A stretch of 64,000 nucleotides of DNA from Agrobacterium vitis (lineage in GTDB: Bacteria > Pseudomonadota > Alphaproteobacteria > Rhizobiales > Rhizobiaceae). Shown here one piece after another: positions 9,357-29,407 of the stretch (position 1 is the first letter of the stretch; each line of letters begins with the position of its first letter). The translations under genes were made by a program, and so were the position numbers. The notes beneath the pieces were generated by a model that saw nothing but the letters and a program-made list of their open reading frames with translations, was not told where the DNA came from and did no database searches. The stretch is from contig NZ_CP118259.1 in NCBI RefSeq assembly GCF_013337045.2, forward strand, positions 2,940,001 through 3,004,000. The letters run 5' to 3'.

Positions 9357-9926
9357 TCAGTCCTTGGCACGCTCAACATAGGAATTGTCTTCAGTGGCAA
9401 TCACCACGCGGGTTCCGGCATTGATATGCGGCGGTACCAGGGTGCGGATGCCGTTGGAAAGCATCGCAGGCTTATAAGACGAGGATGCCGTCTGGCCTTT
9501 GACGACCGGTTCGGTCTCCATGATTTCCAGCGTCACATGGCGCGGCAGGTCAAGCGCCAGCGCAACACCTTCATACATGGAAATAACGCAGGTCATGCCT
9601 TCCTGGAGATAGGCCTTCTGGTCACCCATGGTATCGACATCAACGACGATCTGGTCGTAGTTTTCCGGATTCATGAAGTGGAAGCCTTCACCATCCTCGT
9701 AGAGGAACTGGTGGTTGACGTCTTCGACGAAAGCGCGCTCCACCTGCTCGGTCGTGCGCCAGCGTTCGGACACTTTCACACCGTCAACGATGCGGCGCAT
9801 GTCGATCTGGGTCACCGGCGTGCCTTTGCCGGGATGGAAGTTTTGCGCGGTAAGCACGACATAGAGCTTGCCGTCGACTTCGAGAACATTGCCCTTGCGG
9901 ACCGAAGAGGCGATGACCTTGACCAT
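9357..9926 (-). CDS. efp: Elongation factor P
   Basis: EF-P binds the ribosome between the P and E sites and relieves stalling on polyproline. The protein is 189 residues: KOW-like domain I, then two OB domains. The modification loop is HPGKG with the acceptor at Lys34, as in EF-P proteins carrying beta-lysine. The open frame extends upstream on the minus strand, but [13 protein letters not shown] is the family start, so I place the start codon at 9926-9924. It is divergent from epmA, 162 nt away, whose product modifies it. Confidence 0.95.
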
Positions 9927-10088
9927 TCGGAATTCCTTGTATCTCTCAAACACACATCGTAAAGGACGACCCGGCGCCCCTTTGACATGCTGTGACGTTG
10001 CATGGGGCGCACCTAACCCAAATTTGCCGAAATAGCCAGCCCGTGTTGCAGCCGAATTGCCGGCCAAGGACGAAAGATTAAGAGTGCA

Positions 10089-11162
10089 ATGACTGGAATG
10101 AGCGAAAAGCGCCTCTCCGCCTCCCCTTGGTGGACACCGCGGGTCCATGCAGACCGCCGCCCCTTCCTGCTTGGCCGCAATGCCATCCAGGCCGCCCTGC
10201 GGCTCTATTTCAGCCGTAACGACATCCTGGAGATCGACACCGCAACCTTGCAGATCTCGCCCGGCAACGAGGCGCACTTGCATGCCTTCGCAACGAGCGC
10301 CATTGGCAATGACGGGCAGGCGTATCCTCTTTACCTGCATACATCACCGGAATTTGCCTGCAAGAAACTGCTGGCCGCCGGCGAGCCACGGATCGCCTGC
10401 TTTGCCCATGTCTATCGCAACCGGGAGCGTGGTCCCCTGCACCACCCGGAATTCACCATGCTGGAATGGTATCGCGCCGGGGAACCCTATGAGCGGCTGA
10501 TGGACGATTGTGCTGCCATCCTGGCCCTTGCCGCCGAAACGACAGGAACCCGGCAATTTTCCTTCCGCGGCGGCGTTTGCGATCCCTTTGCGCCGTTTGA
10601 GCGGCTCAGCGTTGCCGATGCTTTTGCGCGCCATGCGGGCATCGATCTTCTGGGCAGCGTGTTTGCCGGCGGCGAAACCGACCGCGACCATCTGGCCGCA
10701 CAGCTACGGCAGGTAGGCATGCGCGTTGCCGAAGACGATGGCTGGGCCGATCTGTTCAGCCGGGTGATCGTTGAAAAAGTCGAACCGCATCTGGGCTTTG
10801 GCCGGCCCACCATTCTCGACCGCTATCCGGTGGCGGAAGCCGCCCTTGCCCGGCCCGCGGCTGACGATCCGCGCGTCGCCGAGCGGTTCGAACTTTATGC
10901 CTGCGGCGTCGAACTGGCCAATGCCTTCGGCGAGTTGACCGATCCGCAGGAGCAACGCCGTCGCTTCATGCTGGAAATGGCGGAGAAGCAGCGGGTGTAC
11001 GGCGAAACCTATCCGCTGGACGAGGATTTTCTGGAGGCGCTGGCCATCATGCCGGAAGCGTCAGGTATCGCGCTCGGTTTCGACCGGCTGGTGCTGCTGG
11101 CGACTGGTGCGCAGCGGATCGAGCAGGTGTTGTGGACACCGGTGGCGGAGCCGCAACCGTGA
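10089..11162 (+). CDS. epmA: EF-P lysine aminoacylase EpmA (GenX/PoxA)
   Basis: This 357-residue protein has the class II lysyl-tRNA synthetase catalytic core without the N-terminal anticodon-binding OB domain, as in EpmA. Motif 2 is readable as [24 protein letters not shown], and motif 3 as [16 protein letters not shown] near the end. By family knowledge it activates (R)-beta-lysine and attaches it to Lys34 of EF-P. It is divergent from efp and overlaps epmB by a few bases, so the three genes form one functional unit. A second ATG at 10098 is an alternative start. Confidence 0.93.
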
Positions 11163-12208
11163 CCGCTCCCGTCAGAACCGTGAAAACTGTCGGAGAACTG
11201 GTCGAGACCGGACTTGTTGCTGCCGAAACCGGTGCGCAACTGGAAGCGGTCGCTGCCCGCTACGCCATCGCCATCACCCCCGCCATGCTGGCGCTGATCG
11301 ACCCAAACGACCCCAAAGACCCGATTGCCGCGCAATTCGTCCCACAAGCCGGTGAATTGGAGCATCAGCCGGTGGAGCGGGCCGATCCGATCGGTGACCA
11401 TGCCCATAGCCCGGTCGAAGGCATTGTCCATCGCTATCCCGACAGGGTTCTGTTGAAGGTGGTGCATAGCTGCCCGGTCTATTGCCGTTTCTGCTTTCGC
11501 CGCGAAATGGTCGGACCGGAAGGCGATGGCCTGCTCTCAGGCCCGGCGCTGGACGCCGCCATTGCCTATATCCGTGACCACAAGGATATCTGGGAGGTCA
11601 TCTTTACCGGCGGCGATCCGCTTGTTCTGTCGCCACGCCGGCTGCGGTCGATCTTGCAGCAATTGGGCACCATCGATCATGTCCGGATCATCCGGTTTCA
11701 CAGCCGTGTTCCCGTCGCCGATCCGGCCCGTATCGACAAGGATCTGATCGACGCCTTGCAGGCGAGCGGCAAGACCACCTATATCGCCATACACGCCAAC
11801 CACCCACGCGAACTGACGCCGCAAGCCCGGGCGGCGAGCGAAAAGCTCCTGCAAGCTGGCTTTGCGCTTTTAAGTCAAACAGTGCTGCTGAAGGGCGTTA
11901 ATGACGATGTTGCTGTGCTGGCGGATCTGATGCGCGCTTTCGTCGACATGCGTATCCGGCCGTATTACCTGCATCACCCGGATCTGGCGCCCGGCACCGG
12001 CCATTTCCGCCTCAGCATAGAGGAAGGCCAGGCGATCGTCTCGGCCTTGCATGGGCATCTGTCGGGTCTCTGTCAGCCGACTTACGTGCTGGATATTCCC
12101 GGCGGCCACGGCAAGGCGCCGATCGATGCGAGCCGGATCAGCAAGGAAGGCGATCATTATCGGGTCACGGACTTCCATGGACATCACCATATTTATCGTG
12201 ATCAGTAG
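11159..12208 (+). CDS. epmB: EF-P beta-lysylation radical SAM aminomutase EpmB
   Basis: This is a lysine 2,3-aminomutase family radical SAM enzyme. The cluster motif is CPVYCRFC (CxxxCxxC) within HSCPVYCRFCFRREMVG, and the SAM-binding GGDPL follows (VIFTGGDPLVLS). It makes (R)-beta-lysine from lysine for EpmA. I chose the GTG at 11159 because it overlaps the epmA stop (GTGA) and has a GCGGAG ribosome site 8 nt upstream. A GTG at 11132 would add nine residues. The length of about 349 residues suits EpmB, which is shorter than catabolic KamA. The 12209-12440 gap after it is notably AT-rich. Confidence 0.93.
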   Translation: MTAPVRTVKTVGELVETGLVAAETGAQLEAVAARYAIAITPAMLALIDPNDPKDPIAAQFVPQAGELEHQPVERADPIGDHAHSPVEGIVHRYPDRVLLKVVHSCPVYCRFCFRREMVGPEGDGLLSGPALDAAIAYIRDHKDIWEVIFTGGDPLVLSPRRLRSILQQLGTIDHVRIIRFHSRVPVADPARIDKDLIDALQASGKTTYIAIHANHPRELTPQARAASEKLLQAGFALLSQTVLLKGVNDDVAVLADLMRAFVDMRIRPYYLHHPDLAPGTGHFRLSIEEGQAIVSALHGHLSGLCQPTYVLDIPGGHGKAPIDASRISKEGDHYRVTDFHGHHHIYRDQ

Positions 12209-12440: not shown

Positions 12441-12692
12441 ATGAACGAGACCATTCGGACTATTCTGGGCAGAGTTGGCGGCTTACAGGTTGCCGTTGCA
12501 GAGATCGCGGCTGATGCCGATCTTTATGCGCTGGGACTGTCTTCTTTTGCATCGGTGCAACTGATGCTCGGCATAGAAGAAGCCTTTGACATTGAATTTC
12601 CCGACCATCTGCTCAACCGCAAATCCTTTGCCAGCATCGAGGCCATCGAACGCACGGTGCGCCAGATCCTGGAGGGTCGGAAGGTCGCCTGA
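12441..12692 (+). CDS. Acyl-carrier-protein-like protein of the amino acid activation cassette
   Basis: This 83-residue phosphopantetheine carrier domain has the attachment region ALGLSSFASVQLM, with Ser35 aligned to the Ser of the usual DSL motif (here SSF). It is followed by acidic helix III (IEEAFDIEFPDHLL). It overlaps the next gene by one base and lies two genes before an amino acid:[carrier protein] ligase. The partner carrier proteins of such ligases are small ACPs of this kind. It therefore probably carries an aminoacyl thioester, not a fatty acid. It opens a four- or five-gene operon after a 232-nt AT-rich gap that should hold the promoter. There is a good GAGGGG ribosome site. Confidence 0.88.
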   Translation: MNETIRTILGRVGGLQVAVAEIAADADLYALGLSSFASVQLMLGIEEAFDIEFPDHLLNRKSFASIEAIERTVRQILEGRKVA

Positions 12693-13906
12693 TGACCGCT
12701 CCGGCTACTCACGCCCTCAACGTCAGGACTCCCGCCGGTAATCTCTCCGAAAGGGCAGCCCGCGTTGCCGCTATTGCCGCAAAATATGCCGAGGATGTCG
12801 ACCGCGAAGGCCGGTTTCCGCGCGAGACCGTGGACGCATTGAAGGCAGAGCAGCTGCTCGGCATCCAGATCCCCGCAGGACTTGGCGGTGAAAATGCCGG
12901 ATTTGCCGCAATTGCCGAGATCTGCACCACGCTTGGCCAGGCCTGCGCCTCCAGCGCGATGATTTTCGCCATGCATCACATCAAATGTTCCAGCCTCGTG
13001 GAACATGCCCAGGACAATGCCTGGCAGCGCAGCTTCATGGCACGGGTTGCCGATGAGCAATTGCTGCTTGGCTCCGCGACGACCGAAGGCGGCATTGGCG
13101 GCAATCTGCGCAATTCCATCTGCGCCATTGAGGTCGATGGCGGCACCTGCCGGCTGGAAAAGGACGCCACCGTCATTTCCTATGGATCAGAGGCCGATGC
13201 GATCCTGATCACTTCGCGCGCCCATAAGGATGCCGCACCGTCCGACCAGGTCATGACCGTATTTCTCAAGGGCCAATATAGCCTGGACAAGACCGTGGAC
13301 TGGGACACACTCGGTATGCGCGGCACTCGGTCCGATGGCTTCCTGTTCAAGGGCGAAGCGCCCGCCATCCAGATCCTGCCAAAACCCTTTGCCGACATTG
13401 CCGCCCAGTCGATGCTGGCCGCCTCCCATATTCTGTGGAGCGGCGTCTGGTACGGCATCGCCGTTGATGCCGTGGCGAGAGCACAGAGCTTCGTGCGCGC
13501 CGCCGCCCGCAAGAGCCAGAACAGCTCGCAACAAGGCCAGATGCCGCCCGGTGCCTTGCATCTGGCGCAAGCCGCCAATCTGTTGCAGCTGGTGCGCTCC
13601 AATGTGGTGGCGGCGCTCAAAGCCTATGAAGAGGCCAAAAATGACGGCGACAAGCTGTCGTCCTTCGGTTTTTCGGTGGCGATGAACAATGTCAAGATTG
13701 CCTCGTCCGAGACGATCATCGACATCATCAATCAGGCCATGCTGATCTGCGGCATCATGGGCTACAAAAACGGCACACCCTACAGCCTTGGCCGCCATCT
13801 GCGCGACGCGCATTCCGCCCGGCTGATGATTTCCAATGACCGCATTCTCGCCAACACATCAACGATGTTGCTGGTCCACAAACTCGACACACGTCTGCTG
13901 GGGTAA
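12692..13906 (+). CDS. Acyl-CoA dehydrogenase-like flavoprotein
   Basis: This 404-residue protein has acyl-CoA dehydrogenase architecture. The N-terminal helical domain runs to about residue 125. A beta-barrel with the FAD-contact stretch [17 protein letters not shown] follows, then a C-terminal four-helix domain ending [20 protein letters not shown]. It is translationally coupled to the carrier protein gene. In other systems ACAD-like enzymes oxidise aminoacyl groups on carrier proteins (for example prolyl-carrier oxidation to pyrrole). Oxidation of an aminoacyl-S-carrier is therefore the attractive reading here, but the substrate is inferred from context only. A general ACAD role in lipid metabolism is the alternative. 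Confidence 0.8.
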
Positions 13907-13910
13907 GCAA

Positions 13911-14819
13911 ATGGATACGCAAGCCAATTTTCTGGACCGGCTGTTCGATGCCGGCCTGCTGATCGATACTGGCGTGGACGGGCTTTATGGCCGCAGCGGC
14001 CAGTTCGAAGATGTGATCGCCGCTTTCGAGCGGCTGATCGACCGGTTCGGTGGCGCAGATGGTGCTGAAGCTCTGCGCTTTCCGCCGGGCATGAACCGCG
14101 CTTTTTTCGAGACCAGCGGCTATATGAAGAGCTTTCCGCAGCTGGCCGGCACCGTGCACAGCTTCTGCGGCAACGAGCTTGACCATGTCAGCCTGCTGAA
14201 ATGCATGGATGCTGATGAGGACTGGACGAAGGACCAGAAGGCAACCGATATCGTGTTGACGCCTGCCGCCTGCTATCCGCTCTATCCAACCATTGCCAAG
14301 CGTGGCCCGATTGCAGCCTCCGGCGCACTGTTTGACTTGCAATCCTATTGTTTCCGCCATGAACCCTCGACCGATCCGGCCCGCCAGCAGCTGTTTCGCA
14401 TGCGCGAATATGTCTGCATGGGTTCAGAAAGCCATGTCACCGATTTCCGCCAGACCTGGATGGATCGCGGCCTGAAAATGATGGAAGAGGTGGCATTGCC
14501 GGTTGAAATCGACATTGCCAACGATCCGTTCTTCGGACGCGCTGGCAAGATGCTGGCCAATAACCAGCGCGACCAGAACCTGAAATTCGAATTGCTGATC
14601 CCGATCACCTCGGTCGCCAAGCCCACCGCCTGCATGAGCTTCAACTATCATCAGGATGCCTTTGGCAGCAAATGGGGCCTGAACCTGGAAGATGGTTCGG
14701 TTGCCCATACCGCTTGCGTTGGCTTCGGTCTGGAGCGGATCGCCCTGGCGCTGTTCCATCACCACGGGCTGGACGTCAAGGCTTGGCCGCAATCGGTGCG
14801 CAGCGCACTCTGGGGCTGA
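13911..14819 (+). CDS. Amino acid--[carrier protein] ligase, seryl-tRNA-synthetase-like
   Basis: This 302-residue class II synthetase catalytic core has no tRNA-binding domain. It belongs to the family described in Bradyrhizobium and Agrobacterium that loads glycine or alanine onto a carrier protein. The putative zinc ligands are Cys121 (PAACYPLYP), Glu166 (motif 2, [11 protein letters not shown]) and Cys269 ([12 protein letters not shown], motif 3). These sit ten residues below the Cys131/Glu176/Cys279 I recall for the Bradyrhizobium enzyme. The open frame continues upstream inside the dehydrogenase gene, but [11 protein letters not shown] follows that gene's stop by 4 nt. It needs the carrier at 12441. 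Confidence 0.9.
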
Positions 14820-15787
14820 TGATGACCACGGTCCTGCCGCTCGATCCGGCCCTCTACCAGCCGCATGCACTGCATTCGGCTGAGCGCATGTGGCCGGAAA
14901 CCAATTGCTATGTCGATCTGTGGATCGAGGTCCTTTCCGTGCTGGGCCTGCCGCCGGAGGCCATGCTGGGTTTTACCCTGACCCAGGATTTCGAGGGCGA
15001 CCAGTTCACCTTCTTCAAGGCGCCGCTGGAAGATCTCGAAGCGCTTTACGGCATTCGCGTCACAGAACTGGCAATTTTCGACCGAGCTGAGGCGCATGTG
15101 GCCCAGCAGATCAGCCGTGGCCGGTTGTGCCTTGTCGAAATGGACAGCTATTTCATGCCCGATACGGCAGGTGTCGGCTATCGCCAGCACCATGGCAAGA
15201 CCACGGTCGGTATCAACCGGCTGGATCTGGCGGGCAGATCAATGGACTATTTCCACAATGGCGGGTTTTTCCGGCTGGAAGCTGAGGATTTCGACGGAAT
15301 TTGGCAATTAGCGGCTCCGGAGGCCGCACTTCCATTCCTGCCCTATACGGAATTTGCCAAATTCCCCGAAACTCGGCCTGACGAGACGCATCTGCGCCAG
15401 GTCGCTGAGCGGCTTTTCGCCTTTCACTTTGCCCGCCGCCCGCAAGACAATCCCTTTGCGGCGTTTGCAGTGGTCTTTCCAGCCCAGGTGGAGGCCATCG
15501 CGGAGCGGCCCTTCGGCTATTTTCATACCTATGCCTTCAACACGTTGCGGCAATTCGGGGCGAATTTCGAGCTTCTAGCCAGTCACTTGCATTGGCTTGC
15601 AGCAGACGATCGCTATACGAGCGAAATTGCCGAAGCATTGCGGATTTCCGAGCTGGCAAAAACCGTCCAGTTCCAACTGGCCCGCGCCGTCACCCGCAAG
15701 AAATTCGAACCACTGAAAGCAGCGCTTGACCCCGCGATTGACGCATGGGACAGGCTGATGACGGGGCTTGCCAGCAAGATCGGCTGA
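14819..15787 (+). CDS. DUF1839 family protein
   Basis: This 322-residue protein belongs to DUF1839, found next to amino acid:[carrier protein] ligases. No catalytic motif is certain. Conserved-looking stretches are ERMWPETNCYVDLWIEVL, LTQDFEGDQFTFFK and LVEMDSYFMPDTAGVGYR. The last two, with Glu and Asp and the single Cys of ETNCY, could serve a transferase that takes the aminoacyl group from the carrier. That role is a guess from position. The start overlaps the ligase stop (TGATG), so the two genes are coupled. A longer frame extends upstream but runs through the ligase gene. Confidence 0.75.
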   Translation: MMTTVLPLDPALYQPHALHSAERMWPETNCYVDLWIEVLSVLGLPPEAMLGFTLTQDFEGDQFTFFKAPLEDLEALYGIRVTELAIFDRAEAHVAQQISRGRLCLVEMDSYFMPDTAGVGYRQHHGKTTVGINRLDLAGRSMDYFHNGGFFRLEAEDFDGIWQLAAPEAALPFLPYTEFAKFPETRPDETHLRQVAERLFAFHFARRPQDNPFAAFAVVFPAQVEAIAERPFGYFHTYAFNTLRQFGANFELLASHLHWLAADDRYTSEIAEALRISELAKTVQFQLARAVTRKKFEPLKAALDPAIDAWDRLMTGLASKIG

Positions 15788-15841: not shown

Positions 15842-18289
15842 ATGATCACCTATCTCGATGCCGACATCCGCCCACTGGAAGCCGGTTGGACCTTGCTGGT
15901 CTGCGAGCCAGGCACCTATGACAGCCCGAAGGCATTGCACCGCGCCAGCGCCCGCCTTCAGGCACCAGTACCCGGCACCGTTGCCCAGGCGCTGACCAAG
16001 GCGGGCCTATTCGATCCTGATCATCCAAGCCCGCTGCATGGCAAGGACATCTGGTATCTCCGCCCCCTGACCGGCGAACAGCCCGGCCCGGCGGTGCTGC
16101 GCTTCGAAGGCTTGGCGACCATTGCCGAGGTCTATTTGAACGACAGGCTGATCCTGTCATCGCAGAGCATGTTCGAGGCCCATGATGTCGATGTAATCCT
16201 GACCGGCTCGGACGACCTGTCGATCTGCTTTCGCGCGCTCAAGCCTCATCTGGAAAGACGAGGTCCAAGAGCCCGCTGGCGACCGCAGATGATGAGCGAC
16301 CAGGGCCTGCGGCTGGTGCGCGCAACCGCCCTTGGCCATATGCCCGGCTGGTGCCCTGACATTCATGCGGTTGGGCCGTACCGGCCAATCAGCCTGATCC
16401 GCCCGGGCGCAAGCACGATAACCGACCTCGCGCTGCACGCCGATCTCGATGAAAACGGCACCGGGCTGCTCGACATCGCATTCCAGCTGACTGGCAGTGT
16501 GACAGCCATATCCGTGACATGTGCGGGTGAGACTCTCGATCTCAAAGCCGATGCCGACGGCCATGTCGCGGGCCAGCTTCGTCTTCCCACTGTTGCGCCC
16601 TGGTGGCCGCGCACCCATGGTGAGCCGGTGCTGCACGACATTCACCTGACGCTGGATGGAAAGCCGCATTCGCTTGGTCTCACCGGCTTTCGCCGCATCC
16701 GGATCGACCGGGGCGCGGATGGCAAGGATTTCGCGATCTTCGTCAATGGCGTGAAAATCTTCTGCCGGGGTGCCGTCTGGACCAATGCCAACCTGACCCG
16801 CCTGCCCAGCACCGCCGAGGATTATGCGTCCTGGCTGAGCATGGCCGCAGATGCCAGCATGAACATGGTCCGCATCGGCGGCACCATGACCTATGAAAGC
16901 GCCGATTTCTTCAGGCTTTGCGATCGGCTAGGACTGATGGTCTGGCAGGATATCATGCTGGCCAATTTCGACTATCCCGCTGCCGACGAGACCTTTGCCG
17001 ACCATATCCACCTGGAAGTGGAACAGCTGTTAAGCGCCGTACAGTCCTCTCCCTCGCTGGCAATCCTGTGCGGCGGCAGCGAAGTCTATCAGCAGGGCGC
17101 CATGCTGGGCCTGCCGGAAACCAGCTGGAAAGGCCCTGTCTTCACCAGCCTTCTGCCGCAGCTCTGCGCGCGCTTTGCACCACATCTGCCTTATGTGGAA
17201 AATTCACCGATGGGTGGCACAATGCCCTTCAGCCCGGATACCGGCGTCACCCATTATTACGGCGTCGGTGCCTATTGCCGCCCGCTTGAGGACGCCCGTC
17301 GCGCCCAAGTCCGCTTTGCCGCCGAATGCCTGGCCTTTGCCCATGTCCCCCAGCAACAGGTGCTGGACAGGCATTTGCCCGTGTCACCGGTTCATGATCC
17401 CCGCTGGAAAGCGCGTGTGCCGCGAGACCGGGGCGCCTCCTGGGATTTCGAGGATATTCGCGACCATTATCTCGCCCTGCTCTACGGTGTCGATCCGGCC
17501 GGGTTGCGCCGGGAAAATCCGGCGCGTTACCTGCATCTGTCGCGGGCGGTCAGTGGAGAGGTGCTGGAGGAAACCTATGCGGAATGGCGCCGGCCCGGTT
17601 CATCCTGCAATGGCGCGCTGGTCTGGATCTTTCAGGACCTGAACATCGGTCCCGGCTGGGGGCTGGTGGATGCGACCGGAGCGCCGAAACCCGTCTGGTA
17701 CGCGGCGCGGCGCGCCTTCAGCCCCATCCGCATCACCATGACCGACGAAGGCACCAATGGGCTAGATGTGCATCTTTGCAATGACACGATGCGGCAACAG
17801 ACTCTGACCCTGGATCTCACTTGCCTGCGCGACGGTAAATCCCCGGTCGTAGCCGCAAGGCGTGCCGTCATCTTGCCCCCGCAAAGCGGCATGACATTGC
17901 ATGCCACCGATCTGTTCGGAGCGTTTTTCGACACGACCTATGCCTTCCGCTTCGGGCCGCCCGCCCATGACGTCGCGGTGGCGACCCTGAGCACCCCGGA
18001 AAACGGCGAGATCGTCAGTCAGTCCTTTCACTTCCCGCAAGGACGCGCCCCGGCCATGCATGACGCAGAGATCAGCACCACGCTCTCGCAGGAAAAGGAT
18101 GGCTGGTGGCTGATGCTGGAAACCGACCGGCTGGCCCAATCCGTCCATATCGCCCTTGAAGACGGCCGCAGCACCGACGATTTCTTTCATCTGGCGCCCG
18201 GTTTTGCCCGCCGGGTCAGGCTTCTAACATCGGACAAACCCAGCGGCGAAATCCTGAGCGGCTCTGCCTTACGACGCTTCCGGTTCTGA
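15842..18289 (+). CDS. Glycoside hydrolase family 2 protein, beta-mannosidase-like
   Basis: This 815-residue protein has the GH2 order: jelly-roll sugar-binding domain (about 20-190), immunoglobulin-like domain (about 200-295), TIM barrel (about 300-590) and C-terminal beta domains. The likely acid/base is Glu414 in LCGGSEVYQQ, where beta-mannosidases have GNNE. The likely nucleophile is Glu495 in RFAAECLAFAHVP, matching the SEFG-type strand end. No signal peptide is visible, so it appears cytoplasmic. It lies 54 nt after the DUF1839 gene on the same strand. It may trim a glycan precursor or remodel the polymer made by this locus. Its tail overlaps the convergent hydrolase gene by 21 bp. Confidence 0.82.
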   Translation: MITYLDADIRPLEAGWTLLVCEPGTYDSPKALHRASARLQAPVPGTVAQALTKAGLFDPDHPSPLHGKDIWYLRPLTGEQPGPAVLRFEGLATIAEVYLNDRLILSSQSMFEAHDVDVILTGSDDLSICFRALKPHLERRGPRARWRPQMMSDQGLRLVRATALGHMPGWCPDIHAVGPYRPISLIRPGASTITDLALHADLDENGTGLLDIAFQLTGSVTAISVTCAGETLDLKADADGHVAGQLRLPTVAPWWPRTHGEPVLHDIHLTLDGKPHSLGLTGFRRIRIDRGADGKDFAIFVNGVKIFCRGAVWTNANLTRLPSTAEDYASWLSMAADASMNMVRIGGTMTYESADFFRLCDRLGLMVWQDIMLANFDYPAADETFADHIHLEVEQLLSAVQSSPSLAILCGGSEVYQQGAMLGLPETSWKGPVFTSLLPQLCARFAPHLPYVENSPMGGTMPFSPDTGVTHYYGVGAYCRPLEDARRAQVRFAAECLAFAHVPQQQVLDRHLPVSPVHDPRWKARVPRDRGASWDFEDIRDHYLALLYGVDPAGLRRENPARYLHLSRAVSGEVLEETYAEWRRPGSSCNGALVWIFQDLNIGPGWGLVDATGAPKPVWYAARRAFSPIRITMTDEGTNGLDVHLCNDTMRQQTLTLDLTCLRDGKSPVVAARRAVILPPQSGMTLHATDLFGAFFDTTYAFRFGPPAHDVAVATLSTPENGEIVSQSFHFPQGRAPAMHDAEISTTLSQEKDGWWLMLETDRLAQSVHIALEDGRSTDDFFHLAPGFARRVRLLTSDKPSGEILSGSALRRFRF

Positions 18290-20203
18290 CACGGGTTCTT
18301 TGCCTGCGGATACACCGGCTTTGATCTGCTGGGCAGGCAATTTCGACGCCTGAACCGTCATCGCCAGCGCTTTGATTTCCTCGAAATAGCGCTGCTGGGC
18401 AGCGGCGGGAGAGAAATTATGATCCGTTTCCGCCAGAATGTCGGTGCGGACATTGGGATAACGTTCCAATTTGCGGCCCTGGGGACCGAAATGCTGATAG
18501 AAATGGTCAAGACCAACGTCCTGCTCGCTATAGAGCAGCACAAGCGGCGTCTTTCGCTTTGCCAGAGCGGCAAAGGCGACGCGCACGGCCCGATGCTCCA
18601 GCCGGACATCGCGGCTGAAGACCTGGGCGAGGCCAAGGCGGCTCAACACACGACGTACGCCAACCAGTGCGAAGTTGCGGGTCGCGTTTTTCACATCCAC
18701 CTTGCCCCGCCAGAGACGCCGCAAGGTTTGCATCTGAAACAGCCGATGCTTGTAGGTATCGAGCGAACGCGGCACCACAGCTAGCCCGTCTTCCACCCGC
18801 CGTCTCTTATCCCAATAGAAGACGAAGGGATTGACGAGGCAGGCTCCGGCAATGCGATGATCCTTGGTCATGCAGGAAAACCCGAGATAACCGCCACTGC
18901 ACCGTCCGGCCACCACACTGGGCAGCAGTGAACGCTCTTCGAGAACGGCAAGCGCCGCTTCCACATCGTCATATTGGGTTTCGGCGTATAGCACCTGATC
19001 CGGCAGGCCCGGCACCGGCGGGCTATCGCCGACATTGGCAACATCGAAGCGCAGGGAGGCAATACCGTCGCCTGCAAGCTTGCGCGCCATGGCGACACCC
19101 GAGCGTCCCCATCCCGCACTGCGGTCATAGGCAGTGTTGAGCAACAGAACGCTTGCGCCACAGCGGGGACCAGTCGGCTCGCACAAAATACCATAAAGCC
19201 GTTTGCCCCGGCCAAACCGAAGGGCCGTCTCGCGAAAATCCACGCCATCGAGGTGCGCCTGATCTTCGTCCTGTGCGGATACCGCTGACGGATCGATAGC
19301 CAACAGACGCTTCTGCTCGCCAAGCGCTGCCGCCCGGCGAACGATCCAGCTTATGACATTTTCAGCCGCCACCATGGGCATGCGGGCCATGGCGGGATTG
19401 CCGACCATCGCATCATAGCCCGGATAGTCGATGCTCTCGACGCGGGCGCCTTTCGCTTCAATCTGCTTTGCCATTTGCCCGTCACCGGGCCGATCCGCCC
19501 GGTTGACGAACAGATGCGGGATGGAGCGATGCGGCTGCACGGCGGAAAAATCGGCTTTCTTCAAGGCCGAAGCCTTTGCATCCGGCATCACATGCCCGGC
19601 AATGGCCGTCATACCGCTGAGCCGCAAATGTTCGGCCAGGCCCAATCCGTCATCGATGACCCGCGCCCAGAACTGCAATTCCCTGAGATAAGCACGACCC
19701 GAGGCCACGGGAGCCATGGCGACAAATCCCGCCAGGCCATCGAGGTCTGCGGCCATGCCCACGCCAAGTGATGCACCCAGCCCATGCCCCAGCAAAATCA
19801 CCGGCAAGCCGCCGGTCTTTTCGGCAAGGACGTCAAGCGCGGCGCGGATCGTATCTTGCCAGAGCGACAGGCCAAGCGTTCGGTCCGGCGGGTCCAGCGC
19901 ATCGCCCGTGCCGGGATAATCGAAGCGCAGACTGGCAATGCCCTCACACGCCAGTTCTTCCGCAATGATGCGGAAAAGCTTGTGCGTGCACATTTCCTCA
20001 AAGCCCCAGGGCTGGAGAAACAGCACCGCGCATTTGCGCACCACACCTTGCTTGGCGCCCTCCGCCGGCTGATAGAGCCCGAAGGTGCCAGCAAAGCTGA
20101 CCGGCTGAGCCACAGCATGCTGGTGCGGCTGAAGCCGCTGGCCAGATGCCGGGCCAACCCGCTCGGTTATCGCTTCCATCAACCTGCCCTTTCCTTGCCC
20201 CAC
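18269..20203 (-). CDS. Two-domain alpha/beta hydrolase
   Basis: This 644-residue protein has two tandem alpha/beta-hydrolase domains (about 40-295 and 325-630). Both have the oxyanion-side strand (CAVLFLQPWGF; SVLLLNTAYDRSAGW) and a D-x-P/N-G-D acid region (RFDYPGTGD; RFDVANVGDS). The nucleophile elbows are unusual. In the first domain the motif reads GHGLG (139-143), with Gly where Ser belongs. In the second it reads GRCSG (433-437), with Cys435 at the nucleophile position. Hydrolases of this two-part kind accompany exopolysaccharide loci. An esterase or acyl-transfer role on the polymer is plausible. The GTG at 20203 is the longest start; an ATG at 20179 is also good. Confidence 0.75.
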   Translation of the reverse strand: MGQGKGRLMEAITERVGPASGQRLQPHQHAVAQPVSFAGTFGLYQPAEGAKQGVVRKCAVLFLQPWGFEEMCTHKLFRIIAEELACEGIASLRFDYPGTGDALDPPDRTLGLSLWQDTIRAALDVLAEKTGGLPVILLGHGLGASLGVGMAADLDGLAGFVAMAPVASGRAYLRELQFWARVIDDGLGLAEHLRLSGMTAIAGHVMPDAKASALKKADFSAVQPHRSIPHLFVNRADRPGDGQMAKQIEAKGARVESIDYPGYDAMVGNPAMARMPMVAAENVISWIVRRAAALGEQKRLLAIDPSAVSAQDEDQAHLDGVDFRETALRFGRGKRLYGILCEPTGPRCGASVLLLNTAYDRSAGWGRSGVAMARKLAGDGIASLRFDVANVGDSPPVPGLPDQVLYAETQYDDVEAALAVLEERSLLPSVVAGRCSGGYLGFSCMTKDHRIAGACLVNPFVFYWDKRRRVEDGLAVVPRSLDTYKHRLFQMQTLRRLWRGKVDVKNATRNFALVGVRRVLSRLGLAQVFSRDVRLEHRAVRVAFAALAKRKTPLVLLYSEQDVGLDHFYQHFGPQGRKLERYPNVRTDILAETDHNFSPAAAQQRYFEEIKALAMTVQASKLPAQQIKAGVSAGKEPVSEPEAS

Positions 20204-20336: not shown

Positions 20337-21857
20337 TCAGCTCCGTTTGGGTGTCGCGGTCAGCAACATCAAAACCACATTCAAAGGCCCCGCCAGCCGT
20401 TTTGGCAAACGGGCGATCAGCCCTGCCATGACCGATACATCCGCCTCCGGCACGGCCCGCAACAGCCGCAGCGCCAGGCAATAGACGCTGACGGCGCCGA
20501 CAATGGCAAGGACAAGGCCACCGATACCCGGCACCACATCCTGCACCGCCAAAGCCGCCGCCGCACAACAGCCAGCAGCTACGGTAACCTTGAAAAGACT
20601 AAACCCCAGCGGCGCCAATGACCCTTCGAACCGCATCCAGCGCAGCATCGCCAGGCTCATGGCGGTAAACACCACGATCCGCACGAAAGCCGCACCTTCT
20701 CCCCCGTAGGAAGGCACAAGCAAAACATCCCCAACCAGCATGATAAACGCACCGCCCAGCCCGACAAACAGTCTTTGGCGGATTTTATCGAGGGCAAACA
20801 GATATTGTGTCGCCACCTGACAGGCAACGGCAACCGGCACAGACAGCGCTAGCAGCGTCAGCATCGGCGCGCTCGGGGCAAAGGCATCACCAAACACCAG
20901 CGTGACCAGCCGATGCGACACCGCCGCCAGACCCAGGCTCATCGGCAGCGTGAAATAGGCAAGACTGCGCACCACGCTTTCAAACATCGCCACAGGCAAC
21001 CGTCCGCCCGGCGCGCGGTGCAGATGTTCGGCATAATAAGGCACAAGACTGCCGGAAAGCTGGATCGGCACCTGCAAGGCAAGATTGGTCAGCGAGAACG
21101 CCACGGAATAGTAGCCGACGGTCTCGATCCCCTGGTAGCGTTGCAGGAAGAACAGCTCGATCCGGTTCAGGAAGATCGAATCCACCATGAATTCCAGCGA
21201 GAGCACGAAGGAGGAGCCAAGCAGATAACGAAGGCCGATACCGCAGCTTTTCACCTTGTGGCGCAACAGGGCGGCAGCAAAGAGAAACTGGGAAATATAG
21301 GCCAGAACATAACCGAACAGCGCGCCCGGTACGCCAAACAGCAGTGTGCCCGCGATGACGCCGACCAGTTGCAGCAGCCCCGCCGTCAAGGTCATGCGGA
21401 AGAAAATATCCACCCGCTGTTCGCCAATCAGGTAGTTCTTGGCAAACATCCCAATGGCCTGCGTGGCAAACAACAACGCCGTCACCACCAGCACTTCAGG
21501 CGCGGTTTCTGCCCAATGCCTGCTTTCAGCCACCCAGAAAAACAGGAAATAGAAGGCTAGCAACAGCAATGTCGAGCCAACCACCGGCCAAAGCAGATAG
21601 GCGGCGAACCCTTTGCGGTCGGCTTCGCCATAGCCCTGCCCTTTCAGCTGCGGCAGCAGACGCAGCAATAACACGCCGGTGCCAAGTTCGGCCACCAGTG
21701 CCGCCGTGGAGGCAAGCCAGACGGAAAAGGCGATAATGCCATTGGCTTCCGGGCCAAGAACCCGTGCCGTGAAGATCGAGCATATGAATCCCGTCGCCAG
21801 CAGGGTCAGCCCCGCCGCCGCATTGAACGCGGAATTTGCGACTATTCCATTGCTCAT
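20337..21857 (-). CDS. Polysaccharide flippase, Wzx-like (PST family)
   Basis: This 506-residue membrane protein has about 12-14 hydrophobic segments. The N-terminal region FICSIFTARVLGPEANGIIAFSVW is typical of the polysaccharide transport (RfbX/Wzx) superfamily. It is expected to move an undecaprenyl-linked repeat unit across the inner membrane. It is first in distance from the centre of a minus-strand run with two glycosyltransferases, and lies opposite the Wzz/Wzy-like genes. Substrate specificity cannot be read from the sequence. Confidence 0.85.
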   Translation of the reverse strand: MSNGIVANSAFNAAAGLTLLATGFICSIFTARVLGPEANGIIAFSVWLASTAALVAELGTGVLLLRLLPQLKGQGYGEADRKGFAAYLLWPVVGSTLLLLAFYFLFFWVAESRHWAETAPEVLVVTALLFATQAIGMFAKNYLIGEQRVDIFFRMTLTAGLLQLVGVIAGTLLFGVPGALFGYVLAYISQFLFAAALLRHKVKSCGIGLRYLLGSSFVLSLEFMVDSIFLNRIELFFLQRYQGIETVGYYSVAFSLTNLALQVPIQLSGSLVPYYAEHLHRAPGGRLPVAMFESVVRSLAYFTLPMSLGLAAVSHRLVTLVFGDAFAPSAPMLTLLALSVPVAVACQVATQYLFALDKIRQRLFVGLGGAFIMLVGDVLLVPSYGGEGAAFVRIVVFTAMSLAMLRWMRFEGSLAPLGFSLFKVTVAAGCCAAAALAVQDVVPGIGGLVLAIVGAVSVYCLALRLLRAVPEADVSVMAGLIARLPKRLAGPLNVVLMLLTATPKRS

Positions 21858-24520: not shown

Positions 24521-26707
24521 ATGAAAATGGACATCGACATTTTTCAAATTCCCGGGATCTTGCGACGGCGCTGGTATTACCTGGCGTTTTTTGCCGCACT
24601 GTTTGCCGGTCTGGCGCTTCTCTATGCGCTCAGCCTGAAGCCTGTCTATGTATCCTCCACGCAGATCCTGCTCGATCCGCGCGGCCTGTCGGCCACCAGC
24701 AACGACAGCCGTCAGCCGACAGCCGCCGTGCAAAGCGACCCGGCCAGCCTCGACAGCCAGATCTATGTGGTGCTTTCCAGCGCCGTGCTGGGGGAAGTGG
24801 TCAACCGGCTCGACCTGACGAAAGACCCCTATCTCTATGCGGGCAAGCCAGACAGCGCCGCATCCCTCGCTGAGGTCATGGCCGCCACCATCGGCGGGCT
24901 GGTCCGGCATGTGAAAGTCGAGCGCGAAGGCCAGTCCTTCATCATGTCGATTACGGTCGAGCACCGCATCGCCAAAACGGCTGCCGACATTGCCAATATG
25001 ATTGCCACCGTCTACCTGAAACAGGTGGACGAAGCCCGCTCCGATGCCGCGCGCCGGGCCAGCGCCGCCTTCCAGGCGCAGGCCAGTGAATTGCGCGACC
25101 GGGTGTTGAAGGCCGAAAGGGCGGTCGAGGAATTCCGCTCAGCCAACGGTCTGGCCAGCACCGGCGTCACCGGGCTGGTGATCGACCAGCAATTGGCCGG
25201 GCTGAACCAGCAATTGATCGCGGCACGCGGCGCGGAAGAACAGCAGCAGGCGATTTACCAGCAAACCCGCAATCTCACCGTTGCCGCCGTTGAAAACGGC
25301 AATATTCCAGAAGCGGTGCAATCCACCACGGTCGGGCTGCTGCGCGACCGCTATGTCCAGCTACAGGACCGCCAGGCCGAAGCCTCCGCCAATCTCGGCG
25401 GCAATCACCCGCAGTTGAAGGCGATCAATTCGCAGGTGGCGAGCATGCGCCAGGCCATCCAGCAGGAGCTGGACCGTGTGCGCCAGTCGATGAAGCTCAA
25501 CTATGACCGGGCGGTTGCCAACCGCAAGGCGCTGGAAACCCAGCTGCAAAGCCTGACGAAAACCAGTTTCGACAGCGGCGCCCGCCAGATCACCCTGCGC
25601 CAGCTGGAAAGCGAAGCCGAAGCCATCCGCACCATTTACAAGGCCTTCCTCAACCGCGCCGAGGAACTGAGCCAGGAACAGACGATCTCCATCAACAATT
25701 CCCGCGTTATCACCGAGGCAGTGGCGACAGCAAAATCGGTCACCACTCTCAAGGTGATGATCCTTGCCGCCGCCATCCTGTTTGGTCTCGCCTTCGGCAG
25801 CACGCTGGCGGTGGTGCTGGAACTGCTGTCGCGCAAGGATATCGACGCCCCCCGGCAAGACCGCATCGTGCCTGTCGCCGCGACCCCTACCAACAGTGAA
25901 CCACAATTAGCGCCGCCGGTTGCGTCATCACGTCATATCGCTCTGATTGCTGACGCAACGGAGCCGAAAAGGCCTAGATCCCGCAATCCGTTCAGTTTTA
26001 TCACCGCCTTTGGCCGCCGGCTGGTTTCGCCTCTTGTCCCAGCATCCAACCCGGCAAACACACAACAACCGGCTGCGGGCGGTGCGTGGTCCCATGCGGT
26101 TGCCAACACAGCCGGTTTTCTGATCGAATGCGGGGAAGGCTATGCTGATCTGACCGTTCTCTTCGTTGCAGCCGGCAGGCCGGTGGCCAGCGCCTTTATT
26201 GGCGATGTGGCGCAGAAGCTGGTTGATCGGGATCGCGGCGTGCTGCTGGCCAATGGAACCATGCTGGACCACCGCTTAGCGATCCGCTCGCACAGAAAAA
26301 CCAATGCCCGGCCAAGCCTTGCCCAGGCATTGCAGCAGCCCGATCTTGAAGACGCACCTCTTTCGCATATCCTGCGCTACGAGCGTATTGCCCTGCCCCA
26401 TAACCAGCCAGCCCGGCCAGCAGCGGGAGCATCAGCCGCCTCCGTCCGCCCTACCTATTCGCGATTTGTCGAGCAAAGCCTTCAGGCGGAAACCGATTTC
26501 ACCTTGATCAATGCCTGCGGCGCCGGGTTCAATGCCAGCGGAGCTGGCAGCGAACAGCATCTTACTGCCCTTGCCGCCGAGGCCGATGTCATTCTCGTTT
26601 TGACCACGGCGCAAGACGAGACCGCCGCCCTGGATGAACTGCTGATACGGATGGGCGAAGACGCAGAACGGGTCGTGGGTCGCATTGTGCTTGAGACCGC
26701 CGGATGA
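24521..26707 (+). CDS. Wzz/GumC-like polysaccharide co-polymerase with degenerate kinase-like tail
   Basis: This 728-residue protein controls chain length and export of Wzy-dependent polymers. A Wzz domain comes first, with TM1 at about 22-40 (YLAFFAALFAGLALLYAL). A long coiled-coil region (about 165-385) ends in a GNVR-like segment (ITLRQLESEAEAIRTIYKAFLNRAEE). TM2 lies at about 405-430. The C-terminal half (about 470-728) looks like a BY-kinase/CpsD fold, but I find no Walker A GxxxxGKS/T, so it is probably inactive as a kinase. There is no Tyr cluster at the end. It overlaps the next gene by 4 nt. Alternative start: ATG at 24527. Confidence 0.87.
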   Translation: MKMDIDIFQIPGILRRRWYYLAFFAALFAGLALLYALSLKPVYVSSTQILLDPRGLSATSNDSRQPTAAVQSDPASLDSQIYVVLSSAVLGEVVNRLDLTKDPYLYAGKPDSAASLAEVMAATIGGLVRHVKVEREGQSFIMSITVEHRIAKTAADIANMIATVYLKQVDEARSDAARRASAAFQAQASELRDRVLKAERAVEEFRSANGLASTGVTGLVIDQQLAGLNQQLIAARGAEEQQQAIYQQTRNLTVAAVENGNIPEAVQSTTVGLLRDRYVQLQDRQAEASANLGGNHPQLKAINSQVASMRQAIQQELDRVRQSMKLNYDRAVANRKALETQLQSLTKTSFDSGARQITLRQLESEAEAIRTIYKAFLNRAEELSQEQTISINNSRVITEAVATAKSVTTLKVMILAAAILFGLAFGSTLAVVLELLSRKDIDAPRQDRIVPVAATPTNSEPQLAPPVASSRHIALIADATEPKRPRSRNPFSFITAFGRRLVSPLVPASNPANTQQPAAGGAWSHAVANTAGFLIECGEGYADLTVLFVAAGRPVASAFIGDVAQKLVDRDRGVLLANGTMLDHRLAIRSHRKTNARPSLAQALQQPDLEDAPLSHILRYERIALPHNQPARPAAGASAASVRPTYSRFVEQSLQAETDFTLINACGAGFNASGAGSEQHLTALAAEADVILVLTTAQDETAALDELLIRMGEDAERVVGRIVLETAG

Positions 26708-28014
26708 CGGTGGCGGCGCAAACCGGGCCGACCGGCACCGGCGACCGGTCCCTGACGCAGGATGAGACGCAGCAGCCAGCGTTTCTTCCCGAATGGCTGA
26801 TCTCGGCGCTTGCCTCCTTCGCTGTCATCGGCGGGCTGGTGCTCAATCTGTTTCTCTGCTTCGTTAACACCCGGATCATGCCAGTCAGCGACACCCATGT
26901 CATGCTGGGGGAAATGACCACGCTGGGCGCTGCCTTCCTACTGGCCGTCGACCGGCGCCCCGGCCTCTACCTCACCCTGCTACTATTCGTCAGCTACATG
27001 CTGATGATCTTTGCCTTGCGCGGCGCGCTGGATCTAAAAGCACTCCGCGACATCTTCATCCCGGTCGGATTCTATTTCATGGGCCGCAGGGTTGCCCATG
27101 TCGGGCTGGCGGACCGGCTGGTGATCGCCTGTGGCCTGATCGTGCTGACCGTCGCGCTTTACGAATATCTGGCGCTTGAAAGCTATCTCGATTATTTCAA
27201 TGTGCTCGGCTATTACATCGCCCGCGGCACCGTGACACTTCAGGAAAGCTTCGGCCAGACACGGGGTCTGTTCATTTCCGGGCTGCGACCGGAGCCGCGC
27301 ACCCTCCTGCCCTTTCTTGGCCAGCACCGGGTGTCCTCGGTGTTTCTGGAACCGGTCTCAGCCGGCAATTTCGGCGTCATCCTCTATGCCTGGGCGCTGT
27401 TTCGACCCGCCATGCCGTGGCGGCTGATCGTCATGGCGCTGGCCATGATCAGCATTGTTCTGGCCGATGCCCGCTTCGGCTTCTTCACCTGCGTCGCCAT
27501 TACCCTGCTTTTGCCGCTCTACCGCTTCATTCCGAAAACCGTCTGGCTGGTCGCCCCGTTCCTGCTGCTCGCCGTGATTGCCGCCTATGGGCTGATCGTC
27601 GGCGCCGAAGGCGGTGCCAACGATCTGTCAGGCCGGTTGAAAGTGACGGCAGGCATTCTCAACAGCCTGGACTTCCAGGTGGTTCTCGGCGCAAAGACCA
27701 CCGATGCCTTTACCGCCGATTCCGGCATTTCCTACACGCTGACCAATTTCGGCCTGTTCGGCTTTGTCGGGCTCTGGGCGGCTTTCGTGCTCTCACCGAT
27801 GAAAGACCCCAGGGCCTGGGCGTTTAGGGGCATGATGGTGGTCTATCTTCTGCTGCTGATGCTGATCAGCAACTCCTTCTATTCGATCAAGACCGCCGCC
27901 CTGATGTGGTTCCTGATCGGCACCGCCGATGCGGTAGACTGGACCAAAGTTCTGGCCTACCGTGACCGCAAGGATGGGCAATCCGCAGACGCTGCGGAGA
28001 AATCGCGCAGATAA
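26704..28014 (+). CDS. Polymerase/ligase-like membrane protein (Wzy/O-antigen ligase type)
   Basis: This 436-residue integral membrane protein has about 10-11 hydrophobic segments. A large loop near the middle contains RGLFISGLRPEPRTLLPFLGQ and SVFLEPVSAGNFGVILYAW; the S-x-F-x-E-P-V motif recurs in Wzy/WaaL-like polymerases. It is coupled to the Wzz-like gene (ATGA overlap), which supports a role in polymerising the repeat unit in the periplasm. Its last 58 bp overlap the end of the convergent GH5 gene. Confidence 0.78.
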   Translation: MTVAAQTGPTGTGDRSLTQDETQQPAFLPEWLISALASFAVIGGLVLNLFLCFVNTRIMPVSDTHVMLGEMTTLGAAFLLAVDRRPGLYLTLLLFVSYMLMIFALRGALDLKALRDIFIPVGFYFMGRRVAHVGLADRLVIACGLIVLTVALYEYLALESYLDYFNVLGYYIARGTVTLQESFGQTRGLFISGLRPEPRTLLPFLGQHRVSSVFLEPVSAGNFGVILYAWALFRPAMPWRLIVMALAMISIVLADARFGFFTCVAITLLLPLYRFIPKTVWLVAPFLLLAVIAAYGLIVGAEGGANDLSGRLKVTAGILNSLDFQVVLGAKTTDAFTADSGISYTLTNFGLFGFVGLWAAFVLSPMKDPRAWAFRGMMVVYLLLLMLISNSFYSIKTAALMWFLIGTADAVDWTKVLAYRDRKDGQSADAAEKSRR

Positions 28015-29048
28015 GGGGTCAGGCCGGCCAATTGCGGCCTGTCACCGGACTTGCCCGGCTGGATGTTGAGCATTTCGGTTTCCGGCCACCAGTCACCGGC
28101 CACCCAATAAGCCCAGCCGACCCAGCGATCCGGGTTCTTCTCCACCACAGCCACCATGTCCTTGATGCCCTTGACGCAGGGCTCTCCACCCGGCGCGCCG
28201 AATTCGCCGAGATAGCCACGCTTGTCATTCTTGCGCAGCCAATCGGTAAACGCCTCAATGGCGGCCACCGCGTCACCTGCCCGGCTGCATTCATCCTTGG
28301 TGCCGGAAAAATCCGCGTCGAAATACTGGTGAACCTCATAGGCATAATTGTTGCCGGGGTCCTTCACCCCCAGCATGACCTCGCCATTGGCGCCGCCATA
28401 GCCATCGCTTTGCCAGCTATGCGCACCTGTCCAGGACACGCCCGGCACGAGAATAAGGTTTTTCGCCCCAACATGGCGAATGGCAGCAATGGCGGCATTG
28501 GCTGCCGGAAGCCATTGGCGCGCGGGCATGTCATAAGGCTCATTCATCAAGCCGAAAACGATGGTTGGATCATTGGCATAATGAGCGGCCAGCCGCATCC
28601 ACAAATCCGCGAAGGCCTCGACAGACACGTCCGGGCCATTGATCTGTTTTTGATGATAGACCGCGAAATTATGCGGATCGAGCACGACCCGCAGATGCGC
28701 CGCCTTCAGCTGCGCAACGGCTGTATCCAGGCGTTTCAGCTCGTCAGCGTCGAAGGCACTGTTGAGCTTGGGTTGCAGACGTTCCCATTTAAAGGGAAGG
28801 CGCACGGAGTTGAAGCCTTTCTCGGCAAAGTAATCGATGGTCCTGGCACTGGGATAGGTATAGGCCCTGTCCGGTGCGCCGCCAATCTCGCCGAATTCCG
28901 CGCCAGAAAGGTTGACCCCTCGCATGCAGGCCTGACCGGCCCAAGCCTGCCCGCTGATGACCGGTGCCACCGAAAGCGTGAGAGCCACAGACATGGTTAT
29001 GGTTCTTTTCAACACGATTTCATACCTGTCCGTCGTCATCGCTGCCAT
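27957..29048 (-). CDS. Secreted glycoside hydrolase family 5 (endoglucanase-like)
   Basis: This protein is about 363 residues from the ATG at 29048, which has an AGGA ribosome site upstream. A signal peptide covers roughly residues 1-37 (TMSVALTLSVAPVISGQAWA). The GH5 acid/base is in FGLMNEPYD and the nucleophile in GYLGEFGAPGG. The strand ends VRLPFKWERLQP and VVLDPHNFAVYH are also present. It should act in the periplasm or outside, cutting beta-glucan-type linkages. In polysaccharide clusters such enzymes trim or release the polymer. A TTG-type longer frame to 29159 exists but would bury the signal peptide. Confidence 0.87.
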   Translation of the reverse strand: MAAMTTDRYEIVLKRTITMSVALTLSVAPVISGQAWAGQACMRGVNLSGAEFGEIGGAPDRAYTYPSARTIDYFAEKGFNSVRLPFKWERLQPKLNSAFDADELKRLDTAVAQLKAAHLRVVLDPHNFAVYHQKQINGPDVSVEAFADLWMRLAAHYANDPTIVFGLMNEPYDMPARQWLPAANAAIAAIRHVGAKNLILVPGVSWTGAHSWQSDGYGGANGEVMLGVKDPGNNYAYEVHQYFDADFSGTKDECSRAGDAVAAIEAFTDWLRKNDKRGYLGEFGAPGGEPCVKGIKDMVAVVEKNPDRWVGWAYWVAGDWWPETEMLNIQPGKSGDRPQLAGLTPYLRDFSAASADCPSLRSR

Positions 29049-29407
29049 TTTCTTATCCTCGTTTTTCGTTCTGTCACGCAGGCAGCTGTTGTGCTGGCAA
29101 ACAGCGACTGGACCTATTTGCGCTGTCATTCGGCGCCCTAACCCGACGTTGCGACACAATTCGGCGCATGAAGACGCAATCGGACCACCTTTTGCCCCAC
29201 AAACCCGGCAGTCTCATTCTCACGGCCTTCGACACTTTTCCTTAAAAGAAAAATAGTTTACTAGACTGAGGCAAGAACCCCCGGATTGATCGGGATTGAC
29301 AATGGATTATGCATCATAAATCAGAAGGCTAACAACCCGCTTCTTCAGGCGGAGGACGCTTTAACGGAAAGAGGCCGTACAAACCGGCCACATCAGAGGA
29401 AGACGAG
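29049..29407. other. Intergenic region between GH5 and purU
   Basis: There is no gene in this 359-nt stretch. It must hold the promoters of the two divergent genes. A TTGACA at 29296-29301 is a candidate -35 for purU, but I find no good -10 at the normal distance. I recognise no riboswitch. Confidence 0.5.

What the first reader, a model, noticed from the sequence alone, without database searches (positions are those of the whole stretch)
12441..15787. Aminoacyl-carrier-protein cassette at the head of a polysaccharide locus
A carrier protein, an acyl-CoA dehydrogenase-like enzyme, a seryl-tRNA-synthetase-like amino acid:[carrier protein] ligase and a DUF1839 protein form one coupled operon. 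It leads straight into a GH2 gene and Wzx/Wzy-type polysaccharide genes. The ligase keeps the C-E-C zinc set and the carrier keeps its phosphopantetheine Ser. The ligase family's chemistry is known, but its end product in rhizobia is, as far as I know, not settled. Here the context points to an amino-acid-decorated glycan or glycan-linked metabolite.
Basis: partly seen in the sequence, partly recalled or inferred. Interest (0 to 1): 0.85.

Follow-up and report, generated by a model that had tools for sequence, protein, structure and literature searches.

The report
Amino acid to sugar linking cassette
A set of five bacterial genes probably loads an amino acid onto a small carrier protein, oxidises it and joins it to an amino sugar, which would give a long-orphaned enzyme family a testable job in making cell-surface sugars.

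The parts
12441..12692 (+). freestanding carrier protein, phosphopantetheine Ser S35 (assignment by family)
   Evidence: NF005480 over cut-off; like Atu2571 2jq4 and the carrier in 4h2w; S35 in 111 of 111 sequences
12692..13906 (+). acyl-CoA-dehydrogenase-fold flavoprotein without a Glu at the usual catalytic position; likely oxidase or monooxygenase of the aminoacyl carrier
   Evidence: Pfam ACAD domains; relatives in PDB are both true ACADs and KijD3/DnmZ-type enzymes; H95, H246, R371, D372 invariant
13911..14819 (+). amino acid:[carrier protein] ligase, seryl-tRNA-synthetase-like
   Evidence: NF005479 520.8 bits; 4h2w 1e-96, Bll0957 3mey 2e-91
14822..15787 (+). DUF1839, predicted aminoacyl-carrier-protein:amine (amino sugar) amide synthase, CcbD-like fold; C29, H124, H145 (start could be 14819)
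15842..18289 (+). GH2 glycosidase of the beta-mannosidase kind, fifth gene of the cassette; E414 and E495
   Evidence: both Glu in 110 of 110 sequences; gene found in 110 of 111 loci
18269..20203 (-). double alpha/beta-hydrolase protein, frequent neighbour of the cassette
   Evidence: below cut-off to exosortase-A-associated hydrolases 1 and 2; homologue in 32 of 80 named loci
20337..21857 (-). Wzx-type flippase
   Evidence: PF13440, PF01943
21912..23063 (-). GumK-like glucuronosyltransferase
   Evidence: PF22059 186 bits
23060..24289 (-). GT4 glycosyltransferase
   Evidence: PF00534, PF13439
24521..26707 (+). Wzz/GNVR chain-length protein
   Evidence: PF02706, PF13807
26704..28014 (+). putative polymerase-like membrane protein (no Pfam match)
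   Evidence: the 19 genomes with strong homologues (over 250 bits) all have DUF1839
27957..29159 (-). GH5 glycosidase
   Evidence: PF00150 177 bits

Best explanation
The cassette is a carrier-protein pathway that makes an aminoacyl amide on a sugar. The ligase activates a small amino acid with ATP and loads it on the carrier's phosphopantetheine (shown for relatives in the literature; family membership shown here). The flavoprotein oxidises the carrier-bound aminoacyl group (inferred from its constant pairing with the ligase and its missing dehydrogenase Glu). DUF1839 takes the acyl group onto Cys29 and passes it to an amine, most likely the amino group of an amino sugar, as CcbD does (inferred from fold, residues and context). 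GH2 trims or releases a beta-linked sugar of the product or its precursor in the cytosol (weakest step). In this genome and about half of the others the acceptor probably belongs to a Wzx/Wzz-type surface polysaccharide encoded next door.
Against: 10 of 25 genomes have none of the three polysaccharide families within 10 kb, among them all 3 of family f93. Of eight annotated plasmid loci, seven (Azospirillum lipoferum, A. brasilense, Mycetohabitans, Rhizobium gallicum, R. leguminosarum, Caballeronia, Phyllobacterium) list no Wzx, Wzz or Wzy product within 12 kb; the eighth, Shinella, has O-antigen-ligase-family and GumC genes (that annotation is incomplete). Three of 9 ligase loci without DUF1839 also have a Wzz homologue nearby, so the polysaccharide link is not special to DUF1839. 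No sequence-level match of DUF1839 to CcbD or BtrH. In the alignment of 80 DUF1839 proteins 11 lack C29, and in 3 of 111 loci (L138, L163, L165) the copy inside the cassette lacks it while another copy in the genome keeps it. AziU3 shares the fold but its chemistry, as I recall it, is ring formation, so fold alone does not fix the reaction. No amino-sugar gene was seen among the neighbouring genes scanned. GH2 has no counterpart in the lincosamide passages read.
Confidence: 0.6

Rival explanations
1. The product is a small soluble aminoacyl-sugar metabolite (lincosamide-like logic), and polysaccharide genes are only frequent neighbours or suppliers of sugar precursors.
For: The cassette has none of the three polysaccharide families within 10 kb in 10 of 25 genomes and sits on plasmids, for example beside nif genes in Rhizobium gallicum. 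CcbD's acceptor is a sugar derivative, not a polymer. GH2 shows no obvious signal peptide (my reading of the sequence, no tool).
Against: Linkage to flippase, chain-length or initiating-transferase genes far above chance in five families; strong homologues of the polymerase-like protein only in genomes with DUF1839. No exporter is a constant member of the loci compared.
Confidence: 0.25
2. DUF1839 is a glycan- or cell-wall-processing enzyme of the papain group, not a transferase from the carrier.
For: [quoted passage not shown] Papain-type cysteine enzymes appear lower in the fold list.
Against: CcbD, CtaG and AziU3 stand about 9 Z units above the best peptidase and also cover the helical C-terminal half, whereas the matched range of most listed peptidases ends near residue 185. 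Found beside a carrier and its loader in 111 of 111 loci.
Confidence: 0.08
3. The loaded carrier feeds a nonribosomal-peptide-like product, as first suggested for the ligase family (reported in the 2010 note).
For: The loading chemistry is that of an adenylation domain.
Against: No condensation domain or NRPS was named by Pfam or by the annotations among the neighbours looked at; three plasmid loci had no annotation. DUF1839 matches a sugar amide synthase fold.
Confidence: 0.05

Closest known systems
aa:CP ligase system of Agrobacterium (Atu2571-Atu2574) and Bradyrhizobium (Bll0957, Bll0958)
   Same: Same ligase, carrier and flavoprotein families; the carrier matches Atu2571, and the 2010 note describes the same neighbours for Atu2574.
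   Different: Loci of the Bll0957 kind (L180-L182, likeness to Bll0957 read from the sequence) and six other ligase-only loci lack DUF1839 and GH2; the carrier, found in 7 of 9, is on the other strand. Known biochemistry covers the loading step; I saw no product assigned.
Lincosamide synthetase (LmbC/LmbN/LmbD, CcbC/CcbZ/CcbD)
   Same: Separate loader, a carrier, and a Cys-dependent amide synthase of the same fold as DUF1839.
   Different: Loader is an adenylation domain there, a tRNA-synthetase relative here; the carrier is a domain of a larger protein there, freestanding here; flavoprotein and GH2 are not mentioned there; no sequence similarity found between DUF1839 and CcbD.
Butirosin side-chain pathway (BtrI, BtrJ, BtrO, BtrH; recalled, BtrH's role also)
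   Same: Carrier-bound amino acid, flavin oxidation, papain-type transferase, amino-sugar acceptor. A BtrH_N profile matches AziU3 by sequence at 2e-4, so BtrH probably shares this fold group.
   Different: hhalign of DUF1839 with seven BtrH_N relatives is not significant (probability 0.8%, E 0.071).
Papain-like cysteine enzyme superfamily, DUF1839 entry (PMC10318531, passages read)
   Same: DUF1839 already placed in the superfamily with a Cys-(Thr/Ser)-His site.
   Different: That survey suggests glycan processing; the passages read do not link DUF1839 with CcbD. H124 is about as conserved as the Thr.

Membership tests
amino acid:[carrier protein] ligase | SerRS-like catalytic core without tRNA-binding domain, over curated cut-off | tested here: met
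   302 aa, NF005479 520.8 bits against 357; 4h2w and 3mey over residues 6-300
amino acid:[carrier protein] ligase | Cys-Glu-Cys zinc ligands (assignment recalled) | tested here: met
   C121, E166, C269 in 112 of 112
amino acid:[carrier protein] ligase | loads an amino acid on the neighbouring carrier | not testable with these tools
   needs enzyme assay
CcbD-type carrier-dependent amide synthase | same fold over the whole chain | tested here: met
CcbD-type carrier-dependent amide synthase | catalytic Cys and His | tested here: met
   C29 and H124 each in 111 of 112 sequences (best copy per locus). Spacing D108-H124 (16) is close to CcbD Asp114-His131 (17). No residue-wise superposition was available, so the equation is inferred. 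Some paralogues lack C29.
CcbD-type carrier-dependent amide synthase | third catalytic acid (Glu) | tested here: inconclusive
   no invariant acid identified at that spacing; H145 (112 of 112) or D142 (95 of 112) may serve
CcbD-type carrier-dependent amide synthase | sequence homology | tested here: not met
   profile of 80 DUF1839 proteins finds no CcbD, CtaG or AziU3 up to E 10
CcbD-type carrier-dependent amide synthase | amide bond from carrier-bound amino acid to amino sugar | not testable with these tools
   needs enzyme assay
BtrH_N family (PF14399) | match to the family model or significant profile comparison | tested here: not met
   only PF08893 matched; hhalign E 0.071
acyl-CoA dehydrogenase | catalytic Glu base | tested here: not met
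   I or V in 111 of 111 at the C-terminal position (residue 380; placed by hand against the recalled MCAD motif); invariant H246 lies near the alternative position
nitrososynthase-type N-oxygenase (KijD3, DnmZ) | closest relatives by sequence | tested here: inconclusive
   3m9v, 4kcf, 4zxv at 5e-13 to 4e-12, no better than two dehydrogenases at 1e-13 and 4e-13
GH2 beta-mannosidase-type glycosidase | acid/base and nucleophile Glu | tested here: met
   E414 and E495 in 110 of 110; both align with Glu of 2vjx, the nucleophile also with 5n6u, whose chain has Cys at the acid/base column. That these two are catalytic is recalled for the family.
Wzx/Wzy-dependent polysaccharide locus | flippase and chain-length protein nearby | tested here: met
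Wzx/Wzy-dependent polysaccharide locus | recognisable polymerase | tested here: inconclusive
   26704-28014 matches no Pfam family

The most novel reading that the evidence does not exclude
A tRNA-synthetase-loaded counterpart of lincosamide synthetase, spread over alpha- and betaproteobacteria, decorates amino sugars of different surface polysaccharides with an N-oxidised or otherwise oxidised small amino acid, a glycan modification that I have not seen described (no dedicated literature search for it was made).
Probability: 0.2. Interest if true: 0.82.

Novelty: new variant of a known kind. Interest (0 to 1): 0.6.

Why it matters
The role of amino acids on these carriers was still called unknown in a 2022 review. 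A specific reaction, donor, catalytic cysteine and class of acceptor can now be tested with a solved relative as guide. If right, bacteria use a carrier route, rather than tRNA or a full NRPS, to put amino acids on sugars, and DUF1839 gets a function.

Tried and rejected
Single-sequence AlphaFold2 of DUF1839 gave a useless model (pLDDT 43); replaced by the alignment model. Sequence-level links of DUF1839 to solved structures or to BtrH_N failed. DUF6005 (AsbE) as a further comparison gave one locus only and was not pursued. Calling the flavoprotein a nitrososynthase was rejected as too strong. 'Obligate polysaccharide gene' was rejected.

Limits of the counts. The linkage sample is 25 DUF1839-positive genomes: 5 of 32 of the same genus (own genome included), G045 and G054, and all positives. 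The own genome suggested the test, so 10 of 20 without the same genus is the cleaner figure. Contig ends cut some neighbourhoods (G609, G670). Chance was computed from match numbers and rounded genome sizes, with positions typed in. Of the 111 loci, L088 and L166 are the same place. In one search, 'EFP' is an antisense ORF of the EF-P gene and 'orf28' an antisense ORF of the GH5 gene. Weaker homologues of the polymerase-like protein: G043 (32% identity, 134 bits), which has no DUF1839, and nine cassette genomes with 27-30% (G001, G016, G019, G020, G022, G025, G035, G476, G668); none of these ten is in the 19.

Literature. The CcbD, CtaG and AziU3 structure papers and the Mocibob 2010/2013 papers were not read; what CtaG and AziU3 do is recalled. 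PMC10318531, PMC12945683, PMC9437257, PMC4351081, PMC10817482, PMC11317620, PMC10888616, PMC11941606: passages only. A search for texts holding two of CcbD, AziU3, BtrH, DUF1839, AsbE, CtaG found only PMC10318531; DUF1839 alone found the same paper; a CtaG/closthioamide search found none. 'Not in print' is limited to that library.

Full report
Observation. The carrier matches NF005480 and the solved Atu2571 carrier; the ligase matches NF005479 at 520.8 bits, 4h2w at 1e-96 and Bll0957 (3mey) at 2e-91; the second gene has acyl-CoA-dehydrogenase domains; the fourth is DUF1839 (464 bits). After 54 nt follows a GH2 gene. The polysaccharide genes are convergent, on the other strand: a double alpha/beta-hydrolase, a Wzx flippase, a GumK-like and a GT4 transferase; then, on +, Wzz and a membrane protein without a Pfam match, and a GH5 gene on -. 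The closest named records are Agrobacterium (Allorhizobium) vitis (94-97% identity of DUF1839 in three records). The genome has one DUF1839 gene.

Extent of the cassette. In 80 loci from named genomes all five genes, carrier, flavoprotein, ligase, DUF1839 and GH2, were found in 80 of 80. By best match they run in this order on one strand in 108 of 111; in L138 and L165 the best DUF1839 match is a second copy, while a weaker copy lies between ligase and GH2, and the third case is L159. DUF1839 is uncommon outside close relatives: 34 of 60 relatives, 5 of 385 genomes of the class sample, 16 of 398 of the phylum sample, the own genome counted each time. The ligase is wider: 28 of 398 over its cut-off. 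In 9 loci of the ligase-only kind the flavoprotein stands next to the ligase in all 9, DUF1839 and GH2 were found in none, and the carrier was detected, on the opposite strand, in 7; three distant ligase relatives had none of the other cassette genes. This suggests that loading and oxidation form one unit, and that DUF1839 and GH2 are an added transfer and trimming unit.

Flavoprotein. It lacks a Glu at the usual position (I or V in 111 of 111; position set by hand) and has invariant H95 and H246. Solved relatives are mixed: two dehydrogenases at 1e-13 and 4e-13, then KijD3 and DnmZ, N-oxygenases of amino sugars by recall, at 5e-13 to 4e-12. I take it as an oxidase or monooxygenase of the aminoacyl carrier, about 60% likely.

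GH2. It belongs to the beta-mannosidase kind, with both presumed catalytic Glu kept in 110 of 110 sequences, so an active glycosidase is likely. Its place in the pathway is unknown; trimming of an aminoacyl glycoside is a guess.

Link to polysaccharide. In 25 genomes with DUF1839 I located Wzx (PF13440), initiating transferase (PF02397) and Wzz (PF02706) genes genome-wide. In 15 of 25 one lies within 10 kb, against at most 0.94 expected; 5 of 7 families have a linked member (P about 6e-5 by family), including all 4 genomes of family f237, which by likeness to the Cupriavidus and Burkholderia loci is betaproteobacterial. Without the five same-genus genomes it is 10 of 20. In 10 of 25 there is none, among them all 3 of f93. 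In the 80 named loci, homologues of the window's own Wzx, GumK, GT4, Wzz or polymerase-like protein lie within the flanks in 37. Arrangements differ between lineages, which speaks for repeated association and not mere shared descent. Of eight annotated plasmid loci seven list no Wzx, Wzz or Wzy product within 12 kb, though A. brasilense has a GT9 gene about 5 kb before the carrier gene, and the Mycetohabitans stretch an aminoarabinosyltransferase and an LTA synthase gene. In Cupriavidus CH34, not annotated in this collection, a mannose-1-phosphate guanylyltransferase-type gene lies beside the cassette. Three of the 9 ligase-only loci have a Wzz homologue too, so part of this link may belong to the ligase unit. 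The polymerase-like protein 26704-28014 has strong homologues (over 250 bits) in 19 of 87 genomes searched, and all 19 have DUF1839; within the window's own family 17 of 38 genomes with DUF1839 and 0 of 13 without (Fisher 0.002, relatedness ignored). A weaker homologue (32%) occurs in G043 without DUF1839. Thus this polysaccharide may need the cassette, while the cassette does not need this polysaccharide. One genome, G054, has a polysaccharide deacetylase gene nearby, which could free an amino group.

Prior art. [quoted passage not shown] That Atu2574 is a DUF1839 protein I infer from gene order; I did not look it up. The 2023 superfamily survey suggests glycan processing for DUF1839. A 2022 review says the role of carrier aminoacylation is unknown (passages). 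What is added here: the fold match with a known amino-acid-to-amino-sugar amide synthase, the five-gene definition, the second ligase type without DUF1839, and numbers for the polysaccharide link, for and against.

Verdict. A predicted carrier-protein pathway for aminoacyl sugars; best reading 0.6, with acceptor and amino acid open. New variant of a known kind.

Noticed in passing
window 9357-12208: EF-P (- strand, start of the protein recognised by eye), an EpmA-like lysyl-tRNA-synthetase relative (10089-11162) and an EpmB-like lysine 2,3-aminomutase (11132-12208) lie directly upstream; EpmA and EpmB homologues occur in 66 of 80 named loci.
   Followed up: partly
L138, L163, L165 (Cupriavidus CH34 and two unnamed relatives): Two DUF1839 genes per genome; the copy inside the cassette has Arg or Gln in place of the catalytic Cys, while a separate copy keeps Cys, perhaps an enzyme and partner pair.
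   Followed up: partly
L180-L188: Ligase and flavoprotein loci without DUF1839 or GH2, carrier on the opposite strand where found (7 of 9); Wzz homologue nearby in 3 of 9.
   Followed up: partly
window 18269-20203: The protein has two alpha/beta-hydrolase domains resembling, below cut-off, the two exosortase-A-associated hydrolases.
   Followed up: no
L134 9307-9480: On a Rhizobium gallicum nif plasmid an exopolysaccharide production repressor gene is annotated just before the cassette.
   Followed up: no
Bradyrhizobium diazoefficiens bll0957 and bll0958 (literature): A table passage of PMC10888616 lists ligase and flavoprotein genes among those changed in a phaR mutant under low oxygen.
   Followed up: no
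window 30559-33483: A 974-residue fusion of an APH-type phosphotransferase domain with a class III aminotransferase.
   Followed up: no
L158 6233-7186: A polysaccharide deacetylase gene lies near the cassette in one genome.
   Followed up: no
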